From assembly GCA_016879935.1 (NCBI GenBank), contig JAACJQ010000432.1, positions 1 through 34,806 on the forward strand: a stretch of 34,806 bases of DNA. Reading direction: 5' to 3'. A program made the position numbers and the translations under genes. The stretch comes from Archangiaceae bacterium (GTDB lineage: Bacteria > Myxococcota > Myxococcia > Myxococcales > Myxococcaceae). Positions 9,735-21,792 of the stretch are shown here, in pieces; within the stretch, counting starts at the first letter, position 1, and each line of letters begins with the position of its first letter. The notes below the pieces were generated by a model. The model saw only the letters and a program-made list of their open reading frames with translations, had not been told where the DNA came from and did no database searches.

Positions 9735-10382
9735 TCAGGGGCGCCCGAGCAGCTCGAGCACCGTCGCCATCGACACGTCGATCGGCTCGGTGCCCGACAC
9801 GCGCAGGTGGGCGTGCTGCTTCGACGGCTCGACGAAGGCGTCGTGCATGGGCTTCACCTGACGGTGGAACTGCTTGTGAACGCCGTCGGGCGTGCGCCCG
9901 CGCTCGCGAACGTCACGCTCGAGGCGGCGGTTGAAGCGCACGTCTTCTTCGCACTCGACGAAGACGGCCACGTCGAACAGGTCGCGCACGTTGGCCGCGT
10001 CGAGAATCAACGTGCCATCGACGACCACCAGCGGCCTCGCCGCGAGCGGGTCGGTGCGGGTGAGTCGTTTGTGGGTCGCGAAGTCGTAGATCGGCACCTC
10101 GACGGGCTTGCCCTCACGCAGCGCCTTCAGCTGCGACTCGAGCAGGGGAAAGTCGAGGCTCGACGGGTGATCGAAGTTCACGCTGCCGCCGTCGCCGTCG
10201 AAGCGGGCGGACTGGTCGATGTAGAACGAGTCCTGCATGACGAGGCAGGCGTCGTCGGCGAAGGCGCGCACCAGCTCTTGCGCCAGCGTCGTCTTGCCCG
10301 AGCCTGAGCCGCCCGCGACGCCGATGAGCACCCGGCGCCCGTTCGCGAAGTGGGCTCTACACCGTGCCAAAGAGTCGGTCAC
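9735..10382 (-). CDS. udk: Uridine kinase
   Basis: A 215-residue P-loop kinase that phosphorylates uridine or cytidine. Walker A is GGSGSGKT at 24-31. The family blocks FDHPSSLDFPLL and VPIYDFATHKR follow. The ATG at 10382 overlaps the end of upp by 26 bases, giving a 17-residue lead before the first strand; no better start is seen. It is the last gene of the minus-strand uracil operon, where it would feed uridine into the UMP pool alongside Upp. Confidence 0.9.
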   Translation of the reverse strand: MTDSLARCRAHFANGRRVLIGVAGGSGSGKTTLAQELVRAFADDACLVMQDSFYIDQSARFDGDGGSVNFDHPSSLDFPLLESQLKALREGKPVEVPIYDFATHKRLTRTDPLAARPLVVVDGTLILDAANVRDLFDVAVFVECEEDVRFNRRLERDVRERGRTPDGVHKQFHRQVKPMHDAFVEPSKQHAHLRVSGTEPIDVSMATVLELLGRP

Positions 10383-10983
10383 CGGCGTCTCCCAGGCCCG
10401 GCAGCAGGTAGCCGCGCTCGTCGAGGCCCTTCTCGATGCTCAACGTGAAGATCTCGACGTCGGGGTGCGCGTTCAGCACCTTGTCGATGCCCACCTGGGC
10501 GGAGAGGATCGTGACGACCTTGATCGGCCCGACCTTGTACTGCTTGAGCCGATCGAGCGCGGCGAGGCAGGTGTCTCCAGTGGCGAGCAGCGGGTCGATG
10601 AGCAGCAACCGGTGGCCGTCCACCCGCTTCGGCAGCTTGAAGTAGTACTCGACGGTCTGGTTCATGCCCTTGTCGCGGTAGATGCCGATGTGACCGAACT
10701 GCGCGAACGGCAGCATCGACATGAACGCGGGCAGCATGCCCTCGGCGGCGCGCAGCACGGCGGCGACGGTGATCTGCTCCTGCACCTTGTACGCGGTCGT
10801 CTTCTGCATCGGGGTGACGACCGGCGTCCTGGTGAGCTTCAGATCGCGCGTGGCCTCGTAGGCGAGAATGGAGCCCAGCTCGTTGAAGATCTGCCGGAAC
10901 TCGTGGGGCGTCGCGTCCTTGTTTCGAAGGTGCGCGAGCTTGTGCTCGATGATCGGGTGCGAAATGACGTGAACGTTCTTCAT
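10357..10983 (-). CDS. upp: Uracil phosphoribosyltransferase
   Basis: A 208-residue enzyme (the usual length) making UMP from uracil and PRPP. The PRPP loop is at 130-138 (DPLLATGDT). The C-terminal uracil-binding part ends in DRLFGT. The ATG at 10983 is preceded by AAAGAGAT, a reasonable ribosome site; the frame is open further upstream but without family similarity. It lies 17 bases after the URC4 stop. In this operon it should supply UMP, the substrate from which the URC route starts. Confidence 0.95.
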   Translation of the reverse strand: MKNVHVISHPIIEHKLAHLRNKDATPHEFRQIFNELGSILAYEATRDLKLTRTPVVTPMQKTTAYKVQEQITVAAVLRAAEGMLPAFMSMLPFAQFGHIGIYRDKGMNQTVEYYFKLPKRVDGHRLLLIDPLLATGDTCLAALDRLKQYKVGPIKVVTILSAQVGIDKVLNAHPDVEIFTLSIEKGLDERGYLLPGLGDAGDRLFGTV

Positions 10984-11000
10984 GATCTCTTTCGTGAAGG

Positions 11001-13473
<2,473 letters not shown>

Positions 13474-13500
13474 GGAGGCGTTCCTTTCGGGGGTGATGCT

Positions 13501-14979
13501 TCAGCTCATCCAGTTGAGGTCCTTCGGCATCGTCCACTTCGTGGTGACCTTCTTGAGGTCTGACCAGAAGTTGAGCGACGCGGGCCCGGTGATGTCACCG
13601 TGGCCGAACTTCGATTCGTAGGTGCCGCCGAACGAGAACGGCTCGCGCGGCACGGGCACGCCGATGTTGATGCCCACCATGCCGCTGTTCGCGCGGCGGG
13701 CCACCTCTTCGGCGATGGCGCCAGACGAGGTGAAGACGCTGGTGGCGTTGCCGAAGGTGCTCGAGTCGTCGACCGCGAGCGCCTCGTCGAGCGAGGCCAC
13801 GCGCATCACCGACAGCACCGGGCCGAAGAGCTCTTTCGTCGCGGCTTCGCTCGAGGCCTTCACCCCGTCGAGAATCGTCGGGCCCAGCCAGTTGCCGTTC
13901 TCGTAGCCGGGCAGGGGCTTCACGGTGCGACCGTCGACCAGGGCCTTCGCTCCGTCGGCGACGCCGCGATCGATGGCGCCGCGGAGGAAGTCGACCTGCT
14001 GCCTCGTGATGATGGCGCCCATGGTCTCGCCCGGCCGGTGGGCGCTCGCGCGCTCGGCCACCTTCGCGAGAATGTGATCGACCTTGCCGACGGCGAGCAC
14101 GACCGAGGCCGCCATGCAGCGCTGGCCCGCGCAGCCCGTGAACGAGTCGGCGATGCCGGCCGCTGCGATCTCGGGGTCGGCGTCGGGCATCAAGATGATG
14201 TGGTTCTTCGCGCCGCCCAGGCAGAGCGCGCGTTTTCCCAGCAGGGTGGTGCGCGAGTAGACGGCCCTGGCGACCGGCGTCGAGCCGACGAAGCCCACCG
14301 CGCGCACCTCGGGGTGATCGATGATCGCGTTCACCGCGTCGACGCCGCCCTGCACGATGGTGAGCACGCCGGGCGGTAGACCCGCCTTCGTGAAGCACTC
14401 GCCGAGCACCTGCGAGGTCATCGGCACCTTCTCCGACGGCTTCCACACGAAGGCGTTCCCCAGCGCGATGGCGATGGGCATCATCCACATCGGCACCATC
14501 GCGGGGAAGTTGAACGGGGTGATGCCGGCGACGACGCCCAGCGGCGCGCGACGCACCTCACAGTGCACGCCGCGAGAGACCTCCATTTTGCCGCCCTGAT
14601 CGAGGTTCTGGAGCGCGAGCGCGAACTCGAGCACCTCGACGCCCTTCATCACGCCCGCTTCGGCTTCCGCGATCGTCTTGCCCGACTCGTACGAGATGAC
14701 GGCGCGCAGCTCTTCGAGGCGGTTGAGAATGTTCTGGCGCACCTCGAACAAGAGGCGCGTGCGCTCCTTGATGGGGGTCTGGGCCCACTCCTTCGCGCCA
14801 GCAGCGGCTCCGGCCACGGCTTCGTCGACGAGCGCGCGATCGGCGCTGCGCAGCTCGAGCATGAGCTCGCCCGTGTACGGGCTGGTGACGGTGTGAGCGC
14901 CCTTCTCGAAGCGCCACTGGCCTTTGACGAGATGGGGAACGACGCGGGGGCCCTGCGACAGTCGCTGGTACGGGTGCAT
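13501..14979 (-). CDS. mmsA: Methylmalonate/malonate semialdehyde dehydrogenase (CoA-acylating)
   Basis: A 492-residue aldehyde dehydrogenase. Catalytic Cys288 lies in GCAGQRCMA. The general-base glutamate region of ordinary ALDHs (ELGGK) is replaced by CLGGAKNHIILMPDAD, a hallmark of the CoA-acylating methylmalonate-semialdehyde group. It would oxidise malonate or methylmalonate semialdehyde to acetyl- or propionyl-CoA. The ATG is at 14979. URC1 follows after 27 bases, so it appears to be the first gene of the minus-strand operon mmsA-URC1-URC4-upp-udk. The URC route is reported to yield 3-hydroxypropionate, which would need this kind of enzyme after one oxidation, so the grouping makes sense (inference). 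Confidence 0.9.
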   Translation of the reverse strand: MHPYQRLSQGPRVVPHLVKGQWRFEKGAHTVTSPYTGELMLELRSADRALVDEAVAGAAAGAKEWAQTPIKERTRLLFEVRQNILNRLEELRAVISYESGKTIAEAEAGVMKGVEVLEFALALQNLDQGGKMEVSRGVHCEVRRAPLGVVAGITPFNFPAMVPMWMMPIAIALGNAFVWKPSEKVPMTSQVLGECFTKAGLPPGVLTIVQGGVDAVNAIIDHPEVRAVGFVGSTPVARAVYSRTTLLGKRALCLGGAKNHIILMPDADPEIAAAGIADSFTGCAGQRCMAASVVLAVGKVDHILAKVAERASAHRPGETMGAIITRQQVDFLRGAIDRGVADGAKALVDGRTVKPLPGYENGNWLGPTILDGVKASSEAATKELFGPVLSVMRVASLDEALAVDDSSTFGNATSVFTSSGAIAEEVARRANSGMVGINIGVPVPREPFSFGGTYESKFGHGDITGPASLNFWSDLKKVTTKWTMPKDLNWMS

Positions 14980-15043: not shown

Positions 15044-15514
15044 TCAAAGCGGAATCGGGGCGCGCACGAGCCGATTCTTCTCCCACGAGAAGAGCGGCAC
15101 GACCGACTTGCCCGCGGCGCGGAAGTGCGGGTCGGCCGAGAAGGCGAGGGTGAGCTCGAGGCGCTTCATCACCACCAGCGAGCTGCAGTCGGTGAGCGAC
15201 AGGCTGGGAACGCGGGGCGCGAGCTTGCGGAAGAGGGCGAGCGACTCCGAGAGCCCCTCTGGCCCGACGCGAACGAGCTGCATCTCTCCCGCCGCGACGA
15301 TGGCCTCGAAGTCGTCGAGGAAGTGGAGCGCCGAATCGGGCCCAGCCGCGGCATGCAGCGCGGTCAGGATCTCCTCCAGCACGAGATCCGACGTCACGCG
15401 CACCGAGCCATGCGCGTCGAGCCACACATCGGCCTCGAGCACGTCGTCGTGCGCCGGGTCGCGCCGGTTCGCCATGGCCAGGAACGCCCAGGTGTCGACG
15501 AAGATGGCCTTCAC
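15044..15514 (-). CDS. PIN-domain toxin (VapC-like ribonuclease)
   Basis: A 156-residue PIN-domain protein. The acidic residues expected in the metal site are visible: D7 in FVDTWAFL, E47 in VLEEIL, D109 in SLTDCSSL and D128 in FSADPHF. PIN toxins cleave RNA. The start is the GTG at 15514, which overlaps the antitoxin stop (GTGA), typical of toxin-antitoxin pairs. The frame upstream of it is the antitoxin gene in another frame. The RNA target is unknown. Confidence 0.85.
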   Translation of the reverse strand: MKAIFVDTWAFLAMANRRDPAHDDVLEADVWLDAHGSVRVTSDLVLEEILTALHAAAGPDSALHFLDDFEAIVAAGEMQLVRVGPEGLSESLALFRKLAPRVPSLSLTDCSSLVVMKRLELTLAFSADPHFRAAGKSVVPLFSWEKNRLVRAPIPL

Positions 15515-15753
15515 TTCGGCAGGGGCTCGGTGGCGGCCTCGAGGGCGAAGTAGCCGCGACGCATGCGAGCCTTCGCGGCAGCCGAGCGCGTCTTGAGCGT
15601 CTCGAGGTCGGCGCGGCTCTCGCGTCGTTCGAGCGCCAGCTCGGCCCCTTCGATCAACAGCTCCCGCACCGTCACCCCGCCCTGCGCCGCGGCGGTCTTG
15701 AGTCGCGCGTGCAGGCCAGGGTCGAGCTGAAAGGTCATCTTCACGGGTGCCAT
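15511..15753 (-). CDS. Ribbon-helix-helix antitoxin
   Basis: An 80-residue protein. The N-terminal MTFQLDPGLHARLK-x-AAAQGG-x-TVRELLIEG segment is a typical ribbon-helix-helix DNA-binding fold (a beta strand, then two helices). The C-terminal charged, alanine-rich part would wrap the toxin. It precedes and overlaps the PIN toxin by 4 bases. The ATG is at 15753; an inverted repeat directly upstream (15757-15780) could be its own operator, as autoregulation is usual for such pairs. Confidence 0.8.
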   Translation of the reverse strand: MAPVKMTFQLDPGLHARLKTAAAQGGVTVRELLIEGAELALERRESRADLETLKTRSAAAKARMRRGYFALEAATEPLPK

Positions 15754-15756
15754 ACA

Positions 15757-15791
15757 GCAAACCGTATCAGCGCCGTTTGCATGCCGTAAAC
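15757..15791 (-). promoter_or_regulatory. Possible operator of the toxin-antitoxin operon
   Basis: GCAAAC at 15757-15762 and GTTTGC at 15775-15780 form an inverted repeat with a 12-base spacer. A further GTTT/AAAC pair follows (15775-15778 with 15788-15791). The sites lie directly upstream of the antitoxin ATG, where a ribbon-helix-helix repressor would be expected to bind. No convincing -35/-10 pair can be fixed. Confidence 0.4.
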
Positions 15792-15900: not shown

Positions 15901-17082
15901 GTGCAATTGCGAATCGTTCTCATTCTCTCGGCGATGGTGCTCACGAGCTGCCCCCAGCCGACGAAGCCCGACCCGGGAGAGGCGCTGCAACGTCAGGCGC
16001 TCGCAGCCATCGACGCCAACGTCGCGCGGCCGTCGCTCGAGCGGTTCGTCACGGATTCGTCGGCGTTGAGTCTGGCCGTCGAGCGTTGGCGGCAGGCGCC
16101 CGCAGGGCAGGACGCGACGGCGCTGGAAGACGCGAAGAAGACGTTCGAGACGGCGTTTCTTTCGTGGCAGCGCGTCGAGTTGCTGCAGTTCGGCCCGCTG
16201 GGCGCAGCGACCCGGGTCACGCTGGGCGAAGGGCTTCGCGACGAGATCTACTCGTGGCCCACTGCCAACCTCTGCCGCATCGACGCTGCGCTCGTCGCGA
16301 ACACGACCCCCGACGATGCGTACTTCGACGCTGCGCTCGTGACGTCGAAGGGCCTCGTGGTGCTCGAGGAGCTGCTCCACAACCAGTCGATGACGACGAC
16401 GTGTCCTTCGACGGCGACCATCGTCACCGATGGCTCGTGGGCTGCGCTCGCAGCGACCCCCGCCTTGCAGGAGCGTCGGAAGGCCTGGGCCGCGGGCGTG
16501 GCCCGACATGTCGAGCGCACCGCGAAGAAGGCACGTGACGGCTGGGTCGCCTACGCCGAGAAGCAGGCCGCTGCTGGTTCGATGGGCTCGCCGTGGAGAA
16601 CCCCGAAGGACGCGCTGGACGACGTCTTCGCCGGCCTCTTCCTCGTCGACCAGATGGTGAAGGACTCGAAGCTGGGCGCGCCGGCCGGCCTCAACATGGC
16701 GTGCATGGCGACGTCGTGCCCCGAGCTCGCCGAGTCACCACGGGCGCTGCTCTCGAGCCGCGCGGTGGTCGAGAACCTCGTCGCGTTGCGTGCTGGTTTC
16801 ACGGGCTCGTTCGAGATCGGCTCGACGGCCGTGGGCTTCGACGATCTGCTCGTCGAGCGTTCTGCGCCCGAGCTGCGCGATCAGATGCTGGCGGCGCTCG
16901 ACGCGGCGCTCGCCAGTGCACGTGCCCTCGATCGCCCGGTTCAGCGGCTCGTCGTCGAGAGCCCCGACACCGTTCCCGCGCTCCGCACGCAAGTGAAGGC
17001 CTTCACCGATCTCTTCAAGACGCAGTTCGTGACCACCCTGTCGCTCAAGGTTCCCAAAGAGGGCGCCGGCGACAACGACTGA
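15901..17082 (+). CDS. Imelysin-family (peptidase M75 / IrpA-like) lipoprotein
   Basis: A 393-residue exported lipoprotein. The N-terminal hydrophobic segment ends in a lipobox LTSC with Cys17. The rest is helical and carries imelysin blocks, including SWQRVELLQFGPLG and KGLVVLEELLHN. The latter is the position of the GxHxxE motif, here G-L-V-V-L-E, so the histidine is missing. Imelysin-like proteins such as IrpA are linked to iron uptake; their biochemistry is not settled. The start is a GTG at 15901; the next ATG (15934) would destroy the signal peptide. A stretch at 909-927 of the 15 kb block (15909-15927) matches 12 of 19 positions of the Fur-box consensus, a weak hint of iron control. 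First gene of a four-gene operon. Confidence 0.8.
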   Translation: MQLRIVLILSAMVLTSCPQPTKPDPGEALQRQALAAIDANVARPSLERFVTDSSALSLAVERWRQAPAGQDATALEDAKKTFETAFLSWQRVELLQFGPLGAATRVTLGEGLRDEIYSWPTANLCRIDAALVANTTPDDAYFDAALVTSKGLVVLEELLHNQSMTTTCPSTATIVTDGSWAALAATPALQERRKAWAAGVARHVERTAKKARDGWVAYAEKQAAAGSMGSPWRTPKDALDDVFAGLFLVDQMVKDSKLGAPAGLNMACMATSCPELAESPRALLSSRAVVENLVALRAGFTGSFEIGSTAVGFDDLLVERSAPELRDQMLAALDAALASARALDRPVQRLVVESPDTVPALRTQVKAFTDLFKTQFVTTLSLKVPKEGAGDND

Positions 17083-17103
17083 CCCACCCTGGACCCGACC
17101 ACC

Positions 17104-18213
17104 ATGCGAATCATCGTCTCAGCACTCACCCTCGCTCTCGTCGCCTGCGGCGGCATGCCCAGCGGCACCGACGCGGGCTGTGAAGTTCCGCTCACGGGCG
17201 CCTACCCCGACACCACCTTCGCGACGGCTGCCGCCAACGAGGTCGCGATGCTTGGTCGGCTCAACGCCTTCAGCGCTCCGCTTCGCAGCGCTGCACTCGA
17301 CGCCGGCTTCACCATCACGCGCGGCGAGCTGAACACCCTCTTCACCGCGGGCACGCCGTCGCTCTCGACGTACATCACGCCCGGCTTCCAGCCGACGCTC
17401 GACGAGGCGCTCACGGCGTTCGTCGCGGCGCAGGGCAAGACGTTCACGCCGGTGAACCCCGCAATGGGCACGGGCGGCATCTATGGCACCGGCACCACCT
17501 CGTACGTGATCTCGGAGAAGGGCGTCGATCTGCGCGAGGTCGTCGACAAGGGCTTCTACGGCGCGGTGTTCTACGCCGAGGCGGCCCGGCGCGTTCCCAC
17601 GGCGACGAGCCCCGAGTCGATCGATCAGCTCGTCGCGCTCTTCGGCGCGAACCCCACCTTCCAGCAGAGCGACACGGCCGCGATGGGCAAGGACGAGATG
17701 GCGGCGAAGTACGCCAAGCGCCGCACGCCCGCGGGAGGCCCCGGCAGCTATGTCGTCATTCGTGACGCGTTCGTGCGGGCGCGGCTCGCGGCGACGTCGA
17801 CTTCGGCCGCGTGTTCGGCCGAGCGTGCCGCAGCCCTCGAGACCGTGAAGCTCGAGTGGGAGCGCGCGCTCGCCTCGACCGTCGTCTTCTACGTGAACTC
17901 GGCGGCGACGAAGCTGCAGGACCCTGCGGCCGACGCGACGAAGAAGGCCTCCGCGCTGCACGATCTCGGCGAAGCGGTCGCGTTCTTCATCGGGCTCAAG
18001 GCCGTGCCGCAGTCGAACCGGAAGATCACCGACGCGCAGCTCGAGCAGGTGCTCACCGCCATGCGTACGCCCTCGCTCTCGGGGTCGACGCTGTTCCGTC
18101 TCGTCACCGACACGCCCGCCGACGTCGACGGCCTGCTCATGGCCAACACGCGCATTCAGCAGGCGTACGGCTTCACGGCCGACGAGATGACCCGCTTCAA
18201 GACCAACTACTGA
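17104..18213 (+). CDS. Exported lipoprotein, DUF4856-like, in imelysin operon
   Basis: A 369-residue lipoprotein: signal segment MRIIVSALTLALVAC with lipobox LVAC and Cys15. The mature part is mostly helical; VDKGFYGAVFYAEAARR and LHDLGEAVAFFIGLK are notable segments. The position next to imelysin, HTTM and TonB-receptor genes is where DUF4856 proteins are found in other bacteria, and length and layout fit, but I assign the family only tentatively. It begins 21 bases after the imelysin gene and ends 3 bases before the HTTM gene. A substrate-binding or delivery role at the membrane is inference. Confidence 0.75.
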   Translation: MRIIVSALTLALVACGGMPSGTDAGCEVPLTGAYPDTTFATAAANEVAMLGRLNAFSAPLRSAALDAGFTITRGELNTLFTAGTPSLSTYITPGFQPTLDEALTAFVAAQGKTFTPVNPAMGTGGIYGTGTTSYVISEKGVDLREVVDKGFYGAVFYAEAARRVPTATSPESIDQLVALFGANPTFQQSDTAAMGKDEMAAKYAKRRTPAGGPGSYVVIRDAFVRARLAATSTSAACSAERAAALETVKLEWERALASTVVFYVNSAATKLQDPAADATKKASALHDLGEAVAFFIGLKAVPQSNRKITDAQLEQVLTAMRTPSLSGSTLFRLVTDTPADVDGLLMANTRIQQAYGFTADEMTRFKTNY

Positions 18214-18216
18214 GCC

Positions 18217-19521
18217 ATGCGCCTCGCCGAGATCGTCAGCCGATTGAACGAGCCCGTCGATGGGCGTTCGCTGCGTGTCTTTCGCGCTGGCCTCGGCGTG
18301 TTGCTGGCCGGAGCGCTGCTTCGACTCCACCTCACGGGGTGGACGGCGCCCCTCTTCCTCGAGCCTGACTTTCGCTTCTCGTACGAGGCGTTCTCGTTCC
18401 TTCCTCCGATTCCGCGCGCGTTGGTGCCGGTCGCGCTCGCGGCCGGAGCGCTCGGCGCGGTGGTGCTGGGCTTTTCGAGCGGCGTGCTCCGTCGCCTGGG
18501 CGGGCTCGTGTTTCTGCTGTGCTTCGGGTGGCTCAAGCTGTTCGACGTCACGAACTACCTGAACCACGACTACCTCGCGTTCCTGCTCGGTGCGCTGCTC
18601 ACGCTCCTTCCGCTCGACGGGGCGACGATTCCTCGTTGGGCGCTGTGGCTGGTGCGCTTTCAGGTGGGCGTCGTCTACGTGCACGCAGGGCTCGCGAAGG
18701 TGAACACGGACTGGTTGCTGCACGCGTGGCCGCTCGAGACGTGGTTCGCGGCGAATCGTGGGTTGCCGGTGCTGGGGCCGCTGCTCGCGTTGCCGTTCGC
18801 GCCGCTCGTGGCTGCGTGGGCAGCGTGCCTGTACGACTGCACGATTCCCTTCTGGCTTTTCAACCGCCGCACGCGCCCGTTCGCCTTCGCGGTGCTGCTC
18901 GTCTTTCACGGCACCACGCACGCGCTCTTCGACATCGGCATCTTCCCGTTCATCATGACGCTGGCGGCGACGGTGTTCTTCGAGCCGTCGTGGCCCGCGC
19001 GGTTCGGGCTCGTGCTGCGTCGAAGCGCGACGTGGAAGCCGCTGCCCAACGCGATCGTCGCGCTGCTGTGTGTCTACGTCGCGTTTCAGGCGCTGTTTCC
19101 GCTGCGCTCTCACCTCATCGGTGACGACGTGCTCTGGGACGAACAGGGCATGCGCTGGTCGTGGAAGGTGATGCTGCGCGAGAAGAACGGCTCCATCAGC
19201 TACCGGGTGCGCGTGCGTGGTGAGGCGCGCGAGTGGCAGGTCGACCCGATGGACGTGGTGACGCCGCGGCAGTCGAACGAGATGAGCGGGCAGCCCGATC
19301 TCATCGTCGCCCTCGGCCGGCACATCGGCCGTCAGATGGAGCAGAAGCTCGGAAGGCCCGTCGAAGTGTTCGTCGACGCGCTGGTGTCTCTCAACGGCCG
19401 GCCCCCCGCACGGCTCTTCAAACCCGACGTCGACGTGATGACGCTCGAGGGGTGGGATCTGCGGCCGGCGCTGTTGCCGTCGCCGCGCTCGTCTCAGCCC
19501 GTTCGAATCGCGGGGTGGTGA
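18217..19521 (+). CDS. HTTM-domain membrane protein (vitamin K carboxylase-like)
   Basis: A 434-residue integral membrane protein. The N-terminus LNEPVDGRSLRVFRAGLGVLL is typical of HTTM (horizontally transferred transmembrane) proteins, which are related to vitamin K-dependent gamma-carboxylase. About seven to eight hydrophobic segments fill residues 20-300. YVHAGLAKVNTDWL near 155-170 contains the conserved Lys-bearing motif of the family. The C-terminal ~130 residues are soluble. The function of bacterial HTTM proteins is mostly unknown. The next gene starts immediately after its stop, so it is almost certainly translated together with the TonB-dependent receptor. Confidence 0.85.
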   Translation: MRLAEIVSRLNEPVDGRSLRVFRAGLGVLLAGALLRLHLTGWTAPLFLEPDFRFSYEAFSFLPPIPRALVPVALAAGALGAVVLGFSSGVLRRLGGLVFLLCFGWLKLFDVTNYLNHDYLAFLLGALLTLLPLDGATIPRWALWLVRFQVGVVYVHAGLAKVNTDWLLHAWPLETWFAANRGLPVLGPLLALPFAPLVAAWAACLYDCTIPFWLFNRRTRPFAFAVLLVFHGTTHALFDIGIFPFIMTLAATVFFEPSWPARFGLVLRRSATWKPLPNAIVALLCVYVAFQALFPLRSHLIGDDVLWDEQGMRWSWKVMLREKNGSISYRVRVRGEAREWQVDPMDVVTPRQSNEMSGQPDLIVALGRHIGRQMEQKLGRPVEVFVDALVSLNGRPPARLFKPDVDVMTLEGWDLRPALLPSPRSSQPVRIAGW

Positions 19522-19524
19522 GTG

Positions 19525-21792
19525 ATGGTCTCGGGGCTTCTGTTCAGTCTCGTCGTCGCTGCAGGGCCGATGGTGCCCTTGCTCTCCGATCCTTTGCCGG
19601 CTCCGAAGCGAGTTCGGGTCGCGCAGCTCGACGACGCAGACGGTGGCGTGTGGTCGTACGAGGACGAGCCGATCGACGCCGGAGCTGCCGATGCCGGCGT
19701 GAAGTTCTCGACGAAGGTCGTGGGGCAACGCGGGCCCGACATTCGGCGCGTGGCCGGGAGCGCGATCGCCCTGACCGAAGAAGATCTCGAGCGGCGCGAG
19801 CTCAACGACGTGCACCGCGTGCTGGCGGAGGTGCCAGGTGTGTACTTCCGCGAGGAGGACGGACTCGGCCTGCGGCCCAACATCGGTCTGCGTGGCGCGA
19901 ACCCCGATCGCAGCGCGAAGGTGACGCTGATGGAAGACGGCGTGCTACTCACGCCTGCGCCGTACTCCGCGCCGGCCGCCTACTACTTCCCCCTCGTCAC
20001 GCGCATGGTGGGCCTCGAGGTCTACAAAGGCCCGGCGGCGATTCAGTATGGCCCGCAGACGATCGGCGGGGCGATCAACCTGCGCACCCGTGAAGTGCCC
20101 ACGTACAACCTGTTCAAGCTCGACGTCGCGGGTGGCAGCCGGTTTCAGGCGCGCGTGCACGGCGTCGCGGCCGCGGGCTCGGAGAAGTGGGGCGTGCTCG
20201 CCGAGGGCGTGTTCCTTCGTGACGACGGCTTCAAGCGCATCGACGGTGGCGGCAACGCGGGCTTCGAGCGCAGCGAGTTCATGATCAAGGGGCGCATCTC
20301 GCCGGGTGACGCGTGGAAGCAGCAGCTGATCGTCAAGTCGACGCTCTCGATCGAAGACAGCCGCGAGACCTACCTGGGGCTGACGGGCGCCGACTTCGAG
20401 GCGACGCCGCTCCGGCGCTACTCGGCGACGGCCCTCGATCGCATGCAGGCCAACAGGCTCTCGGTGAGCGCGCGTTGGTCGGCCCAGCCCGCGCCGTGGC
20501 TCACGTTGACCGCCGATGCGTACCGCCACGCCTTCGATCGTGCGTGGAACCGGCTCGATCACTTCCGTCGCGGGCCGGAGCTGTATTCGCTGCTCGTGCA
20601 GCCCGTGCGCGGCGGTCTCGACGGTCAGTTTCTGCAGGTGCTGCGTGGCGCGGCCGATTCGACCGGCCCCGACGACGCCCTCGTGGTGCAGCGCAACTCC
20701 CGCACGTTCATCAGTGAAGGCGTGCAGCTCAGCGCGCGTTCGACGTTCTCGACGGGGCCGATCTCACACGAGGTCGAGGCTGGCGCGCGGTTTCATCACG
20801 ACGAGATTCGCCGAGATCACACGGGCCAGAGCTACGCGATGACGAACGGCGCGCTGGTGCGTGACGAAGCTCCCATGACGCAGGAGGCGCTCAATCGCGG
20901 CGTCTCCCGGGCGGGCGCGCTGCAGCTGCACGACACGCTGACGTGGGGCCGGTTTCTGCTCTCTCCCGGCGCGCGCCTCGAGCTGATCGACATGGCGTAC
21001 TCGGACGATCTGACGAAGTCGTCGAGCCGCGGGCTGCAGGTCGTTCCGCTCGTCGGGCTCGGTGGCGTGGTCGCGCTCCCGCTCGGCGTCAACGTGTTCG
21101 GCGGGGTGCACCAGGGCTTCAGCCCCGTCACGCCAGGCCAGCAGGCCGACGTGCTGCCCGAGCGCGCGACGCACTTCGAGTTGGGCGTTCGGGCGCCGAG
21201 CCGGAAACGCCGCTTCGAGGTGGTCGGCTTCTGGAGCGAGTACACGAACCTCACCGGCGAGTGCACCGGTAGCTCGGGCTGCGTCGACGACTCGCTCAAC
21301 CGGCAGTTCAACGGCGGAGCGGGGCGCATCATCGGCGTCGAGGCCCTGGCGTCGATGTCGTTCGCGTTGCCGGCCAACTTCGAGCTCGTCCCCCAGCTCA
21401 CGTACACCTTCACGTCGGCGCACTTCCTCACCGACTTCACCTCGGCGAACCCGATCTGGGGCACCGTTCGTGCGGGCGACTTCATTCCGTACGTGCCTTC
21501 GCATCAGGGGTCGGCGCGGTTGATCATGAACCGTGAGGCGCTCTCGGTCTCGGTGGGCGTCGAGGCGAGCAGCGGCTTTCTCGAAGAGGCGGGCGATGGA
21601 ACGAGACAGCCGGTCGTGCCTGCGCGGGCGTTGCTCGACGCGACCGCCAGCTACCGGCTCGGCGCGTTTCAGTTCTACGTGACGGGCACGAACCTGACGA
21701 ACCAGCAGGTCATCGCGGCGCGGCGTCCCTTCGGGGCCCGCCCCATCGCGCCCATCGCCGTGCAGGGGGGCGTTCGCGCCCAGTGGCCGTAG
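19525..21792 (+). CDS. TonB-dependent outer-membrane receptor, FecA-like
   Basis: A 755-residue outer-membrane receptor. After a signal peptide and an acidic spacer comes the plug domain with VLAEVPGVYFREEDG, the block LRPNIGLRGANPDRSAKVTLMEDG (in parts) and APYSAPAAYYFP, which are characteristic of ferric-dicitrate (FecA)-type receptors. The remaining ~550 residues alternate as beta strands and end in a short aromatic strand (RAQWP). GTG (19522) and ATG (19525) are adjacent; I take the ATG. It is the last gene of the imelysin-lipoprotein-HTTM operon, giving the outer-membrane entry gate. No TonB, ExbB or ExbD gene is nearby, so energy must come from elsewhere in the genome. Confidence 0.9.
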   Translation: MVSGLLFSLVVAAGPMVPLLSDPLPAPKRVRVAQLDDADGGVWSYEDEPIDAGAADAGVKFSTKVVGQRGPDIRRVAGSAIALTEEDLERRELNDVHRVLAEVPGVYFREEDGLGLRPNIGLRGANPDRSAKVTLMEDGVLLTPAPYSAPAAYYFPLVTRMVGLEVYKGPAAIQYGPQTIGGAINLRTREVPTYNLFKLDVAGGSRFQARVHGVAAAGSEKWGVLAEGVFLRDDGFKRIDGGGNAGFERSEFMIKGRISPGDAWKQQLIVKSTLSIEDSRETYLGLTGADFEATPLRRYSATALDRMQANRLSVSARWSAQPAPWLTLTADAYRHAFDRAWNRLDHFRRGPELYSLLVQPVRGGLDGQFLQVLRGAADSTGPDDALVVQRNSRTFISEGVQLSARSTFSTGPISHEVEAGARFHHDEIRRDHTGQSYAMTNGALVRDEAPMTQEALNRGVSRAGALQLHDTLTWGRFLLSPGARLELIDMAYSDDLTKSSSRGLQVVPLVGLGGVVALPLGVNVFGGVHQGFSPVTPGQQADVLPERATHFELGVRAPSRKRRFEVVGFWSEYTNLTGECTGSSGCVDDSLNRQFNGGAGRIIGVEALASMSFALPANFELVPQLTYTFTSAHFLTDFTSANPIWGTVRAGDFIPYVPSHQGSARLIMNREALSVSVGVEASSGFLEEAGDGTRQPVVPARALLDATASYRLGAFQFYVTGTNLTNQQVIAARRPFGARPIAPIAVQGGVRAQWP

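What the first reader, a model, noticed from the sequence alone, without database searches (positions are those of the whole stretch)
15901..21792. Imelysin-lipoprotein-HTTM-TonB receptor operon: an uncharacterised iron system
Four tightly packed genes encode two lipoproteins, a vitamin K-carboxylase-like HTTM membrane protein and a FecA-type receptor. Imelysins are linked to iron, but what HTTM proteins do is unknown. The genes stand directly before the heme cluster. A working idea is that the HTTM protein acts on the lipoproteins or on iron at the inner membrane (by modification or electron transfer), with the receptor as the outer gate. The imelysin lacks the histidine of GxHxxE.
Basis: partly seen in the sequence, partly recalled or inferred. 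Interest (0 to 1): 0.7.

Follow-up and report, generated by a model that had tools for sequence, protein, structure and literature searches.

The report
Bacterial iron operon with vitamin-K-carboxylase homologue
A four-gene bacterial iron-uptake unit, found in much the same form in several phyla, contains a relative of the human blood-clotting enzyme vitamin K carboxylase with its key catalytic residues kept, usually next to a lipoprotein that ends in the same tiny acidic tail, so the unknown job of bacterial vitamin K carboxylases becomes testable.

Summary
The four genes are real and packed: imelysin lipoprotein, DUF4856 lipoprotein, HTTM plus vitamin-K-carboxylase (VKGC) lumenal domain, TonB receptor. 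The set is widely conserved. Of 161 non-redundant VKGCs with readable upstream DNA, 133 lie directly downstream of an imelysin or DUF4856 gene. In Bacteroidota 84% of 57 operons carry a Fur box (2% expected), and published Riemerella data show the same gene set rising under iron limitation. Iron-regulated uptake is well supported for the family, inferred for the window. The HTTM protein keeps GGCX's catalytic base (K218), Glu-binding N159/H160 and quinone pocket in all 161 homologues, so it is probably a working menaquinol-dependent enzyme. New: imelysins lacking the GxHxxE histidine (the VKGC partners) end in Asp-x-Asp-COOH (142 of 144); none of 42 His-type imelysins do. The tail is predicted disordered. 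It also occurs in Psychrobacter IPPA and nine loci without VKGC, so it marks the imelysin family rather than VKGC alone. Best reading: the enzyme modifies its lipoprotein partner, the tail being a prime candidate site; activity and substrate are untested. The neighbouring heme genes are not a conserved feature.

The parts
15901..17082 (+). Imelysin-family lipoprotein of the GxxxxE (IPPA/PA4372) type
   Evidence: PF09375 81.5 bits; model matches 3pf0 E 2.7e-8, TM 0.85 on target; the only PF09375 match in this genome
15949..15951 (+). Lipobox Cys17 of the imelysin (LTSC)
   Evidence: sequence; invariant column in A2 and A4
16351..16368 (+). GLVVLE, the GxHxxE position without histidine
   Evidence: sequence; alignment
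17071..17079 (+). Invariant C-terminal tail Asp391-Asn392-Asp393-COOH (DxD)
   Evidence: disordered in the AlphaFold2 model
17104..18213 (+). DUF4856 lipoprotein, lipobox LVAC
   Evidence: PF16148 27.9 bits against cut-off 22.3; conserved partner gene
18217..19521 (+). HTTM + VKGC lumenal domain membrane protein, homologue of vitamin K-dependent gamma-glutamyl carboxylase
   Evidence: PF05090 177.9, PF22777 121.8 bits; GGCX structures E 1.6e-17
18562..18567 (+). Asn116-His117, equivalent to Glu-binding N159-H160 of GGCX
   Evidence: alignment; invariant in 161/161
18697..18699 (+). Lys161, equivalent to the catalytic base K218 of GGCX
   Evidence: alignment; invariant in 161/161
19522..21792 (+). 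TonB-dependent outer-membrane receptor
   Evidence: Plug 50.7 and barrel 75 bits; a receptor lies directly downstream of VKGC in 88/149 loci

Best explanation
This is a conserved outer-membrane iron-acquisition operon. The TonB receptor brings a ferric complex across the outer membrane; the two lipoproteins (imelysin, DUF4856) bind or hand over the iron in the periplasm. The HTTM/VKGC protein is a working menaquinol- and O2-dependent enzyme of the inner membrane that modifies its partner lipoprotein after synthesis, as GGCX does with clotting factors. The imelysin is the likeliest substrate, and its exposed, invariant C-terminal Asp-x-Asp tail is the likeliest recognition or modification site (for example carboxylation, giving a stronger metal ligand). 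Shown by computation: gene set, conservation, Fur boxes in Bacteroidota relatives, intact catalytic residues, DxD tail, a menaquinone-pathway gene and a VKOR homologue in the genome. Inferred: iron regulation in this organism, transport roles, enzyme activity, substrate and site.
For: Linkage: 133/161 non-redundant VKGCs directly follow an imelysin or DUF4856 gene, often with a 4-bp overlap; 88/149 precede a TonB receptor. All operon-linked VKGCs fall in one clade of 145 tips, support 0.955, with 7 unlinked members inside it. GGCX residues kept: K218, N159, H160, W223, F286, F299, W399 in 161/161; F294 and H287 nearly so (roles from PMC12589487). Fur boxes at 15/19 or better in 84% of 57 Bacteroidota operons against 2.2% in shuffles and 1.2% in other tiles. 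Riemerella TBDR, VKGC, imelysin and a hypothetical protein (RAYM_09779-09794) rise 2.1- to 3.1-fold under iron limitation. Tail: 142/144 non-His imelysins end in DxD, 0/42 His-type do; background in other ORFs 0.24%. Only four columns are invariant in 40 imelysins, two of them the tail Asps. In Bacteroidota 48/51 tail-bearing imelysins sit beside a VKGC against 0/11 tail-less ones. Model pLDDT 94.6 overall but 45 in the last block. MenD 401.7 bits and VKOR 54.2 bits in this genome.
Against: The tail occurs without VKGC: Psychrobacter IPPA (3pf0) ends in DGD (its own operon could not be read), and loci L256-L258, L262-L265, L275, L276 bear the tail with no VKGC alongside. The tail holds Asp, not Glu, and no Glu-rich Gla-like segment was seen. 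Two GGCX substrate contacts are not kept (Y395, R436), and the protein is 434 aa against 758. By my memory the Leptospira homologue epoxidises vitamin K but does not carboxylate. VKOR presence does not track VKGC. No Fur box is claimed upstream of the window operon.
Confidence: 0.45

Rival explanations
1. The VKGC homologue is only a quinol epoxidase/oxygenase and modifies no protein; it serves the iron system by local O2 or quinol chemistry (for example redox poise for iron).
For: K218 base and quinone pocket kept but Y395 and R436 contacts lost; the Leptospira homologue is said, from memory, to epoxidise without carboxylating. In two tail-bearing operons without VKGC a different O2-using membrane protein family, FA_hydroxylase, lies in or next to the cluster (L275, L265).
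Against: N159 and H160, the Glu-handling residues, are invariant in 161/161; tight pairing with one lipoprotein family.
Confidence: 0.2
2. The enzyme acts on a small molecule, such as a carboxylate iron chelator, rather than on the lipoproteins.
For: The operon includes a TonB receptor for an unknown substrate, loosely FecA-like.
Against: In the imelysin-DHOR-imelysin-VKGC architecture most loci have no receptor directly behind VKGC, while the imelysin stays; the partner that is kept is the imelysin.
Confidence: 0.15
3. The HTTM protein is a permease or anchor that replaces EfeU as inner-membrane iron channel, with vestigial catalytic residues.
For: EfeU is absent from the cluster and an inner-membrane step is otherwise missing; FTR1 homology lies elsewhere in the genome.
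Against: Complete conservation of the catalytic residues across phyla is not expected of a channel; the VKGC lumenal domain is present.
Confidence: 0.1
4. The DxD tail is unrelated to VKGC: it is a metal-binding or assembly feature of GxxxxE imelysins that makes up for the missing histidine, and VKGC modifies something else.
For: The tail tracks loss of the histidine almost perfectly (142/144 against 0/42) and exists in loci without VKGC.
Against: 48/51 tail-bearing imelysins in the Bacteroidota sample adjoin VKGC.
Confidence: 0.35

Closest known systems
Human gamma-glutamyl carboxylase GGCX
   Same: HTTM and lumenal domain; K218, N159, H160, W223, F286, F294, F299, W399 equivalents; expected use of menaquinol
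   Different: 434 aa against 758; Y395 and R436 equivalents differ; substrate unknown; operonic with iron lipoproteins
Leptospira vitamin K carboxylase homologue (from memory; not examined here)
   Same: Bacterial VKGC; Leptospira has iron-regulated imelysin-DHOR-imelysin genes (PMC13066512, PMC7567364)
   Different: Reported, from memory, to epoxidise but not carboxylate, with His160 replaced; the window enzyme keeps the His.
Fur-regulated imelysin/DHOR clusters (P. aeruginosa PA4370-PA4373 type; EfeUOB-like)
   Same: GxxxxE imelysin; iron control; a VKGC-bearing variant imelysin-DHOR-imelysin-VKGC exists
   Different: The window has DUF4856 and a TonB receptor instead of DHOR and a second imelysin; it holds the genome's only imelysin
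Riemerella anatipestifer RAYM_09779-09794
   Same: TBDR, VKGC, imelysin and a hypothetical protein, iron-regulated
   Different: Listed in a table; no functional conclusion about VKGC in the passages read; that the hypothetical protein is DUF4856 is my inference

Membership tests
Vitamin K-dependent gamma-glutamyl carboxylase (GGCX/VKGC) | HTTM plus VKGC lumenal domain | tested here: met
   PF05090 177.9 and PF22777 121.8 bits, both over cut-off
Vitamin K-dependent gamma-glutamyl carboxylase (GGCX/VKGC) | Catalytic base K218 | tested here: met
   K161 aligned; 161/161
Vitamin K-dependent gamma-glutamyl carboxylase (GGCX/VKGC) | Glu-binding N159 and H160 | tested here: met
   N116-H117, 161/161
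Vitamin K-dependent gamma-glutamyl carboxylase (GGCX/VKGC) | Further substrate contacts Y395 and R436 | tested here: not met
   Met312 and Glu355 in the pairwise alignment; position 312 is M, Y or F in linked relatives. So it is filed as a VKGC homologue, not as a proven carboxylase
Vitamin K-dependent gamma-glutamyl carboxylase (GGCX/VKGC) | Glu carboxylation coupled to vitamin K epoxidation | not testable with these tools
   needs an assay
IPPA/PA4372 (GxxxxE) imelysin family | Imelysin fold with the His of GxHxxE replaced | tested here: met
   GLVVLE; 3pf0 match
IPPA/PA4372 (GxxxxE) imelysin family | Operon with an EfeB-like di-heme peroxidase (DHOR) and a His-type imelysin (common, not strictly defining) | tested here: not met
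   Not in the operon; no second imelysin in the genome; DHOR homologues only on other contigs
FecA ferric citrate receptor | FecA equivalog score | tested here: not met
   87.7 bits against 1100
DUF4856 | PF16148 over gathering score | tested here: met
   27.9 against 22.3 bits; relation to known folds inconclusive
Fur-regulated operon | Fur box upstream | tested here: inconclusive
   Present in 84% of 57 Bacteroidota relatives; the box used by this phylum is not known, so the window is not settled

The most novel reading that the evidence does not exclude
Bacterial VKGC homologues carry out a new vitamin-K-dependent modification, carboxylation or oxidation of the C-terminal Asp-x-Asp tail of an imelysin lipoprotein, creating an iron-binding site; this might be an ancestral setting of the clotting-factor carboxylase chemistry.
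Probability: 0.2. Interest if true: 0.93.

Novelty: new variant of a known kind. Interest (0 to 1): 0.74.

Why it matters
What bacterial relatives of the vitamin K carboxylase do is open. This ties most of those found in two sampled phyla to one iron-related operon and to one lipoprotein partner with an invariant three-residue end, so substrate and chemistry can be tested by mass spectrometry of a single protein. It also gives imelysins without the GxHxxE histidine a positive hallmark of their own.

Tried and rejected
Heme-cluster link: rejected as conserved context. DxD tail as a by-product of gene overlap: rejected; an ATGA overlap forces the last codon to end in A, so it cannot encode Asp, and the window has no overlap there. 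Tail as a strict mark of VKGC partners: rejected after IPPA and nine loci without VKGC showed it. DUF4856 as a second imelysin: profile comparison matched only the signal peptides; structure comparison gave middling helical-bundle matches, imelysin 3n8u at Z 4.5 among them, not decisive. VKOR as a partner marker: present in 143/195 Myxococcota genomes with or without VKGC. Plasmid search for gammaproteobacterial tail-bearing imelysins found none. Papers: no paper in the library holds DUF4856, and none holds two of imelysin, DUF4856 and HTTM.

Full report
Observation. The four ORFs lie exactly where stated. Pfam names them imelysin (81.5 bits), DUF4856 (27.9), HTTM with VKGC lumenal domain (177.9 and 121.8) and a TonB receptor. 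Gaps are 21, 3 and 0 bp. Both lipoproteins have a lipobox. The receptor is FecA-like only in a loose sense. hemN follows after 63 bp.

Conservation. PF22777 was found in 72 of 195 Myxococcota genomes and 56 of 247 Bacteroidota genomes. Neighbourhoods were fetched and, with 80 named loci found by VKGC similarity, annotated with HMMs built here. After removing redundancy, 133 of 161 VKGCs have an imelysin or DUF4856 gene directly upstream on the same strand, and 88 of 149 a TonB receptor downstream. Per set: Myxococcota 34/43, Bacteroidota 38/53, named loci 61/65. The last set is biased because it was drawn by similarity to mostly imelysin-linked VKGCs; the first two were not chosen by neighbours. 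Two architectures dominate: DUF4856-imelysin-VKGC-receptor, and imelysin-DHOR-imelysin-VKGC. The window's genus swaps the first two genes of the former. Record titles include Bacteroidota, Myxococcota, Planctomycetota and Chloroflexota. In a tree all linked VKGCs fall in one clade (145 tips, support 0.955, 7 unlinked inside).

Iron. Using the published Riemerella Fur box (PMC5609570), 48 of 57 Bacteroidota operons have a match of at least 15/19 within 350 bp upstream, against 2.2% in shuffles and 1.2% in other tiles of the same loci. Riemerella data list TBDR, VKGC, imelysin and a hypothetical protein, with neighbouring locus tags, all up 2.1- to 3.1-fold under iron limitation. The delta-fur ratios with iron are smaller (1.36 to 1.93), so direct Fur control there is moderate. 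For the window itself iron control is inferred.

Enzyme. The closest solved structures are GGCX (E 1.6e-17). From that alignment K161 equals K218, N116-H117 equal N159-H160, W166 equals W223, F230/F238/F243 equal F286/F294/F299, W316 equals W399. In 161 homologues K161, N116, H117, W166, F230, F243 and W316 never vary. In GGCX K218 deprotonates the hydroquinone, and N159, H160 and Y395 hold the substrate Glu (PMC12589487). Y395 and R436 are not kept. The genome has MenD (401.7 bits), no futalosine-pathway match and a VKOR homologue.

Imelysin and its tail. The lost histidine marks the IPPA/PA4372 family (PMC3143127). Aligning the partners revealed that they end in Asp-x-Asp-COOH, x mostly G or N. 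In 187 non-redundant imelysins, 142 of 144 without the His column end in DxD, against 0 of 42 with the His; of the remainder one is L144, where the motif lies three residues before the end, and one (L083) looks like a disrupted reading frame (a homologue cut by a contig end, L267, was not decisive). Among other ORFs the rate is 0.24%. In 40 imelysins of 27% mean column identity only Cys17, Trp215, Asp391 and Asp393 are invariant. AlphaFold2 gives mean pLDDT 94.6 but 45 for the last block, so the tail is conserved yet probably unstructured, as expected of a tag, ligand or modification site. In the Bacteroidota sample 48 of 51 tail-bearing imelysins adjoin a VKGC, 0 of 11 tail-less ones do (counted by hand from the tables; relatedness not corrected). 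But the tail also exists without VKGC: IPPA ends in STDGD, and several loci have an imelysin with DUF4856 and receptor, or with DHOR, and no VKGC. In L275 an FA_hydroxylase gene sits in the VKGC slot and in L265 just after the receptor. So the tail belongs to the imelysin family, and VKGC is its commonest sampled companion, not its only one.

Interpretation. An iron-uptake operon, Fur-controlled in relatives, is the secure part. That VKGC is an active menaquinol-dependent enzyme is likely from residue conservation. That it modifies the imelysin, and at the tail, is inference; the strongest rival is that the tail is a metal ligand making up for the missing His while VKGC acts elsewhere. These two readings overlap with the best explanation in part and are separable by mass spectrometry of one protein.

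Limits. Tests ignore phylogenetic relatedness. HMM searches can miss divergent neighbours. Proteobacterial and Leptospira contexts could not be read. Statements on the Leptospira enzyme are from memory and untested. The confidence values of the rivals are not exclusive of each other.

Noticed in passing
L154, L178, L181, L184, L190, L191, L193, L194, L203, L204: A second Bacteroidota VKGC group without imelysin lies beside a RibF-like gene (TIGTFDGVHIGH) and often a SerS-like gene (names by sequence inspection only); a conserved context of its own, function unknown. In unlinked VKGCs the GGCX Y395 position is mostly His.
   Followed up: partly
L275:6950-7924; L265:10470-11405: FA_hydroxylase (PF04116) membrane proteins in or next to tail-bearing DUF4856-imelysin-receptor operons that lack VKGC; possible replacement of one O2-using membrane enzyme by another.
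   Followed up: partly
L256: Bacteroidota imelysin-DHOR-imelysin(DxD) cluster without VKGC, beside hemB and hemE homologues, echoing the window's hem neighbourhood.
   Followed up: partly
window 10357-14979 (- strand): Four packed genes that look like a uracil-catabolism (URC-type) set: uracil phosphoribosyltransferase-like, an unknown 402 aa protein, GTP cyclohydrolase II-like, aldehyde dehydrogenase. Only the last was checked (PF00171).
   Followed up: no
window 15044-15760 (- strand): PIN-domain protein (PF01850, 40.1 bits) divergent from the operon; possible part of a toxin-antitoxin pair.
   Followed up: no
L115 and L111: A record titled Klebsiella pneumoniae MAG carries an imelysin-DHOR-imelysin-VKGC cluster; probably mislabelled, since the same imelysin C-terminal stretch is in a Verrucomicrobia MAG (L111).
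   Followed up: no
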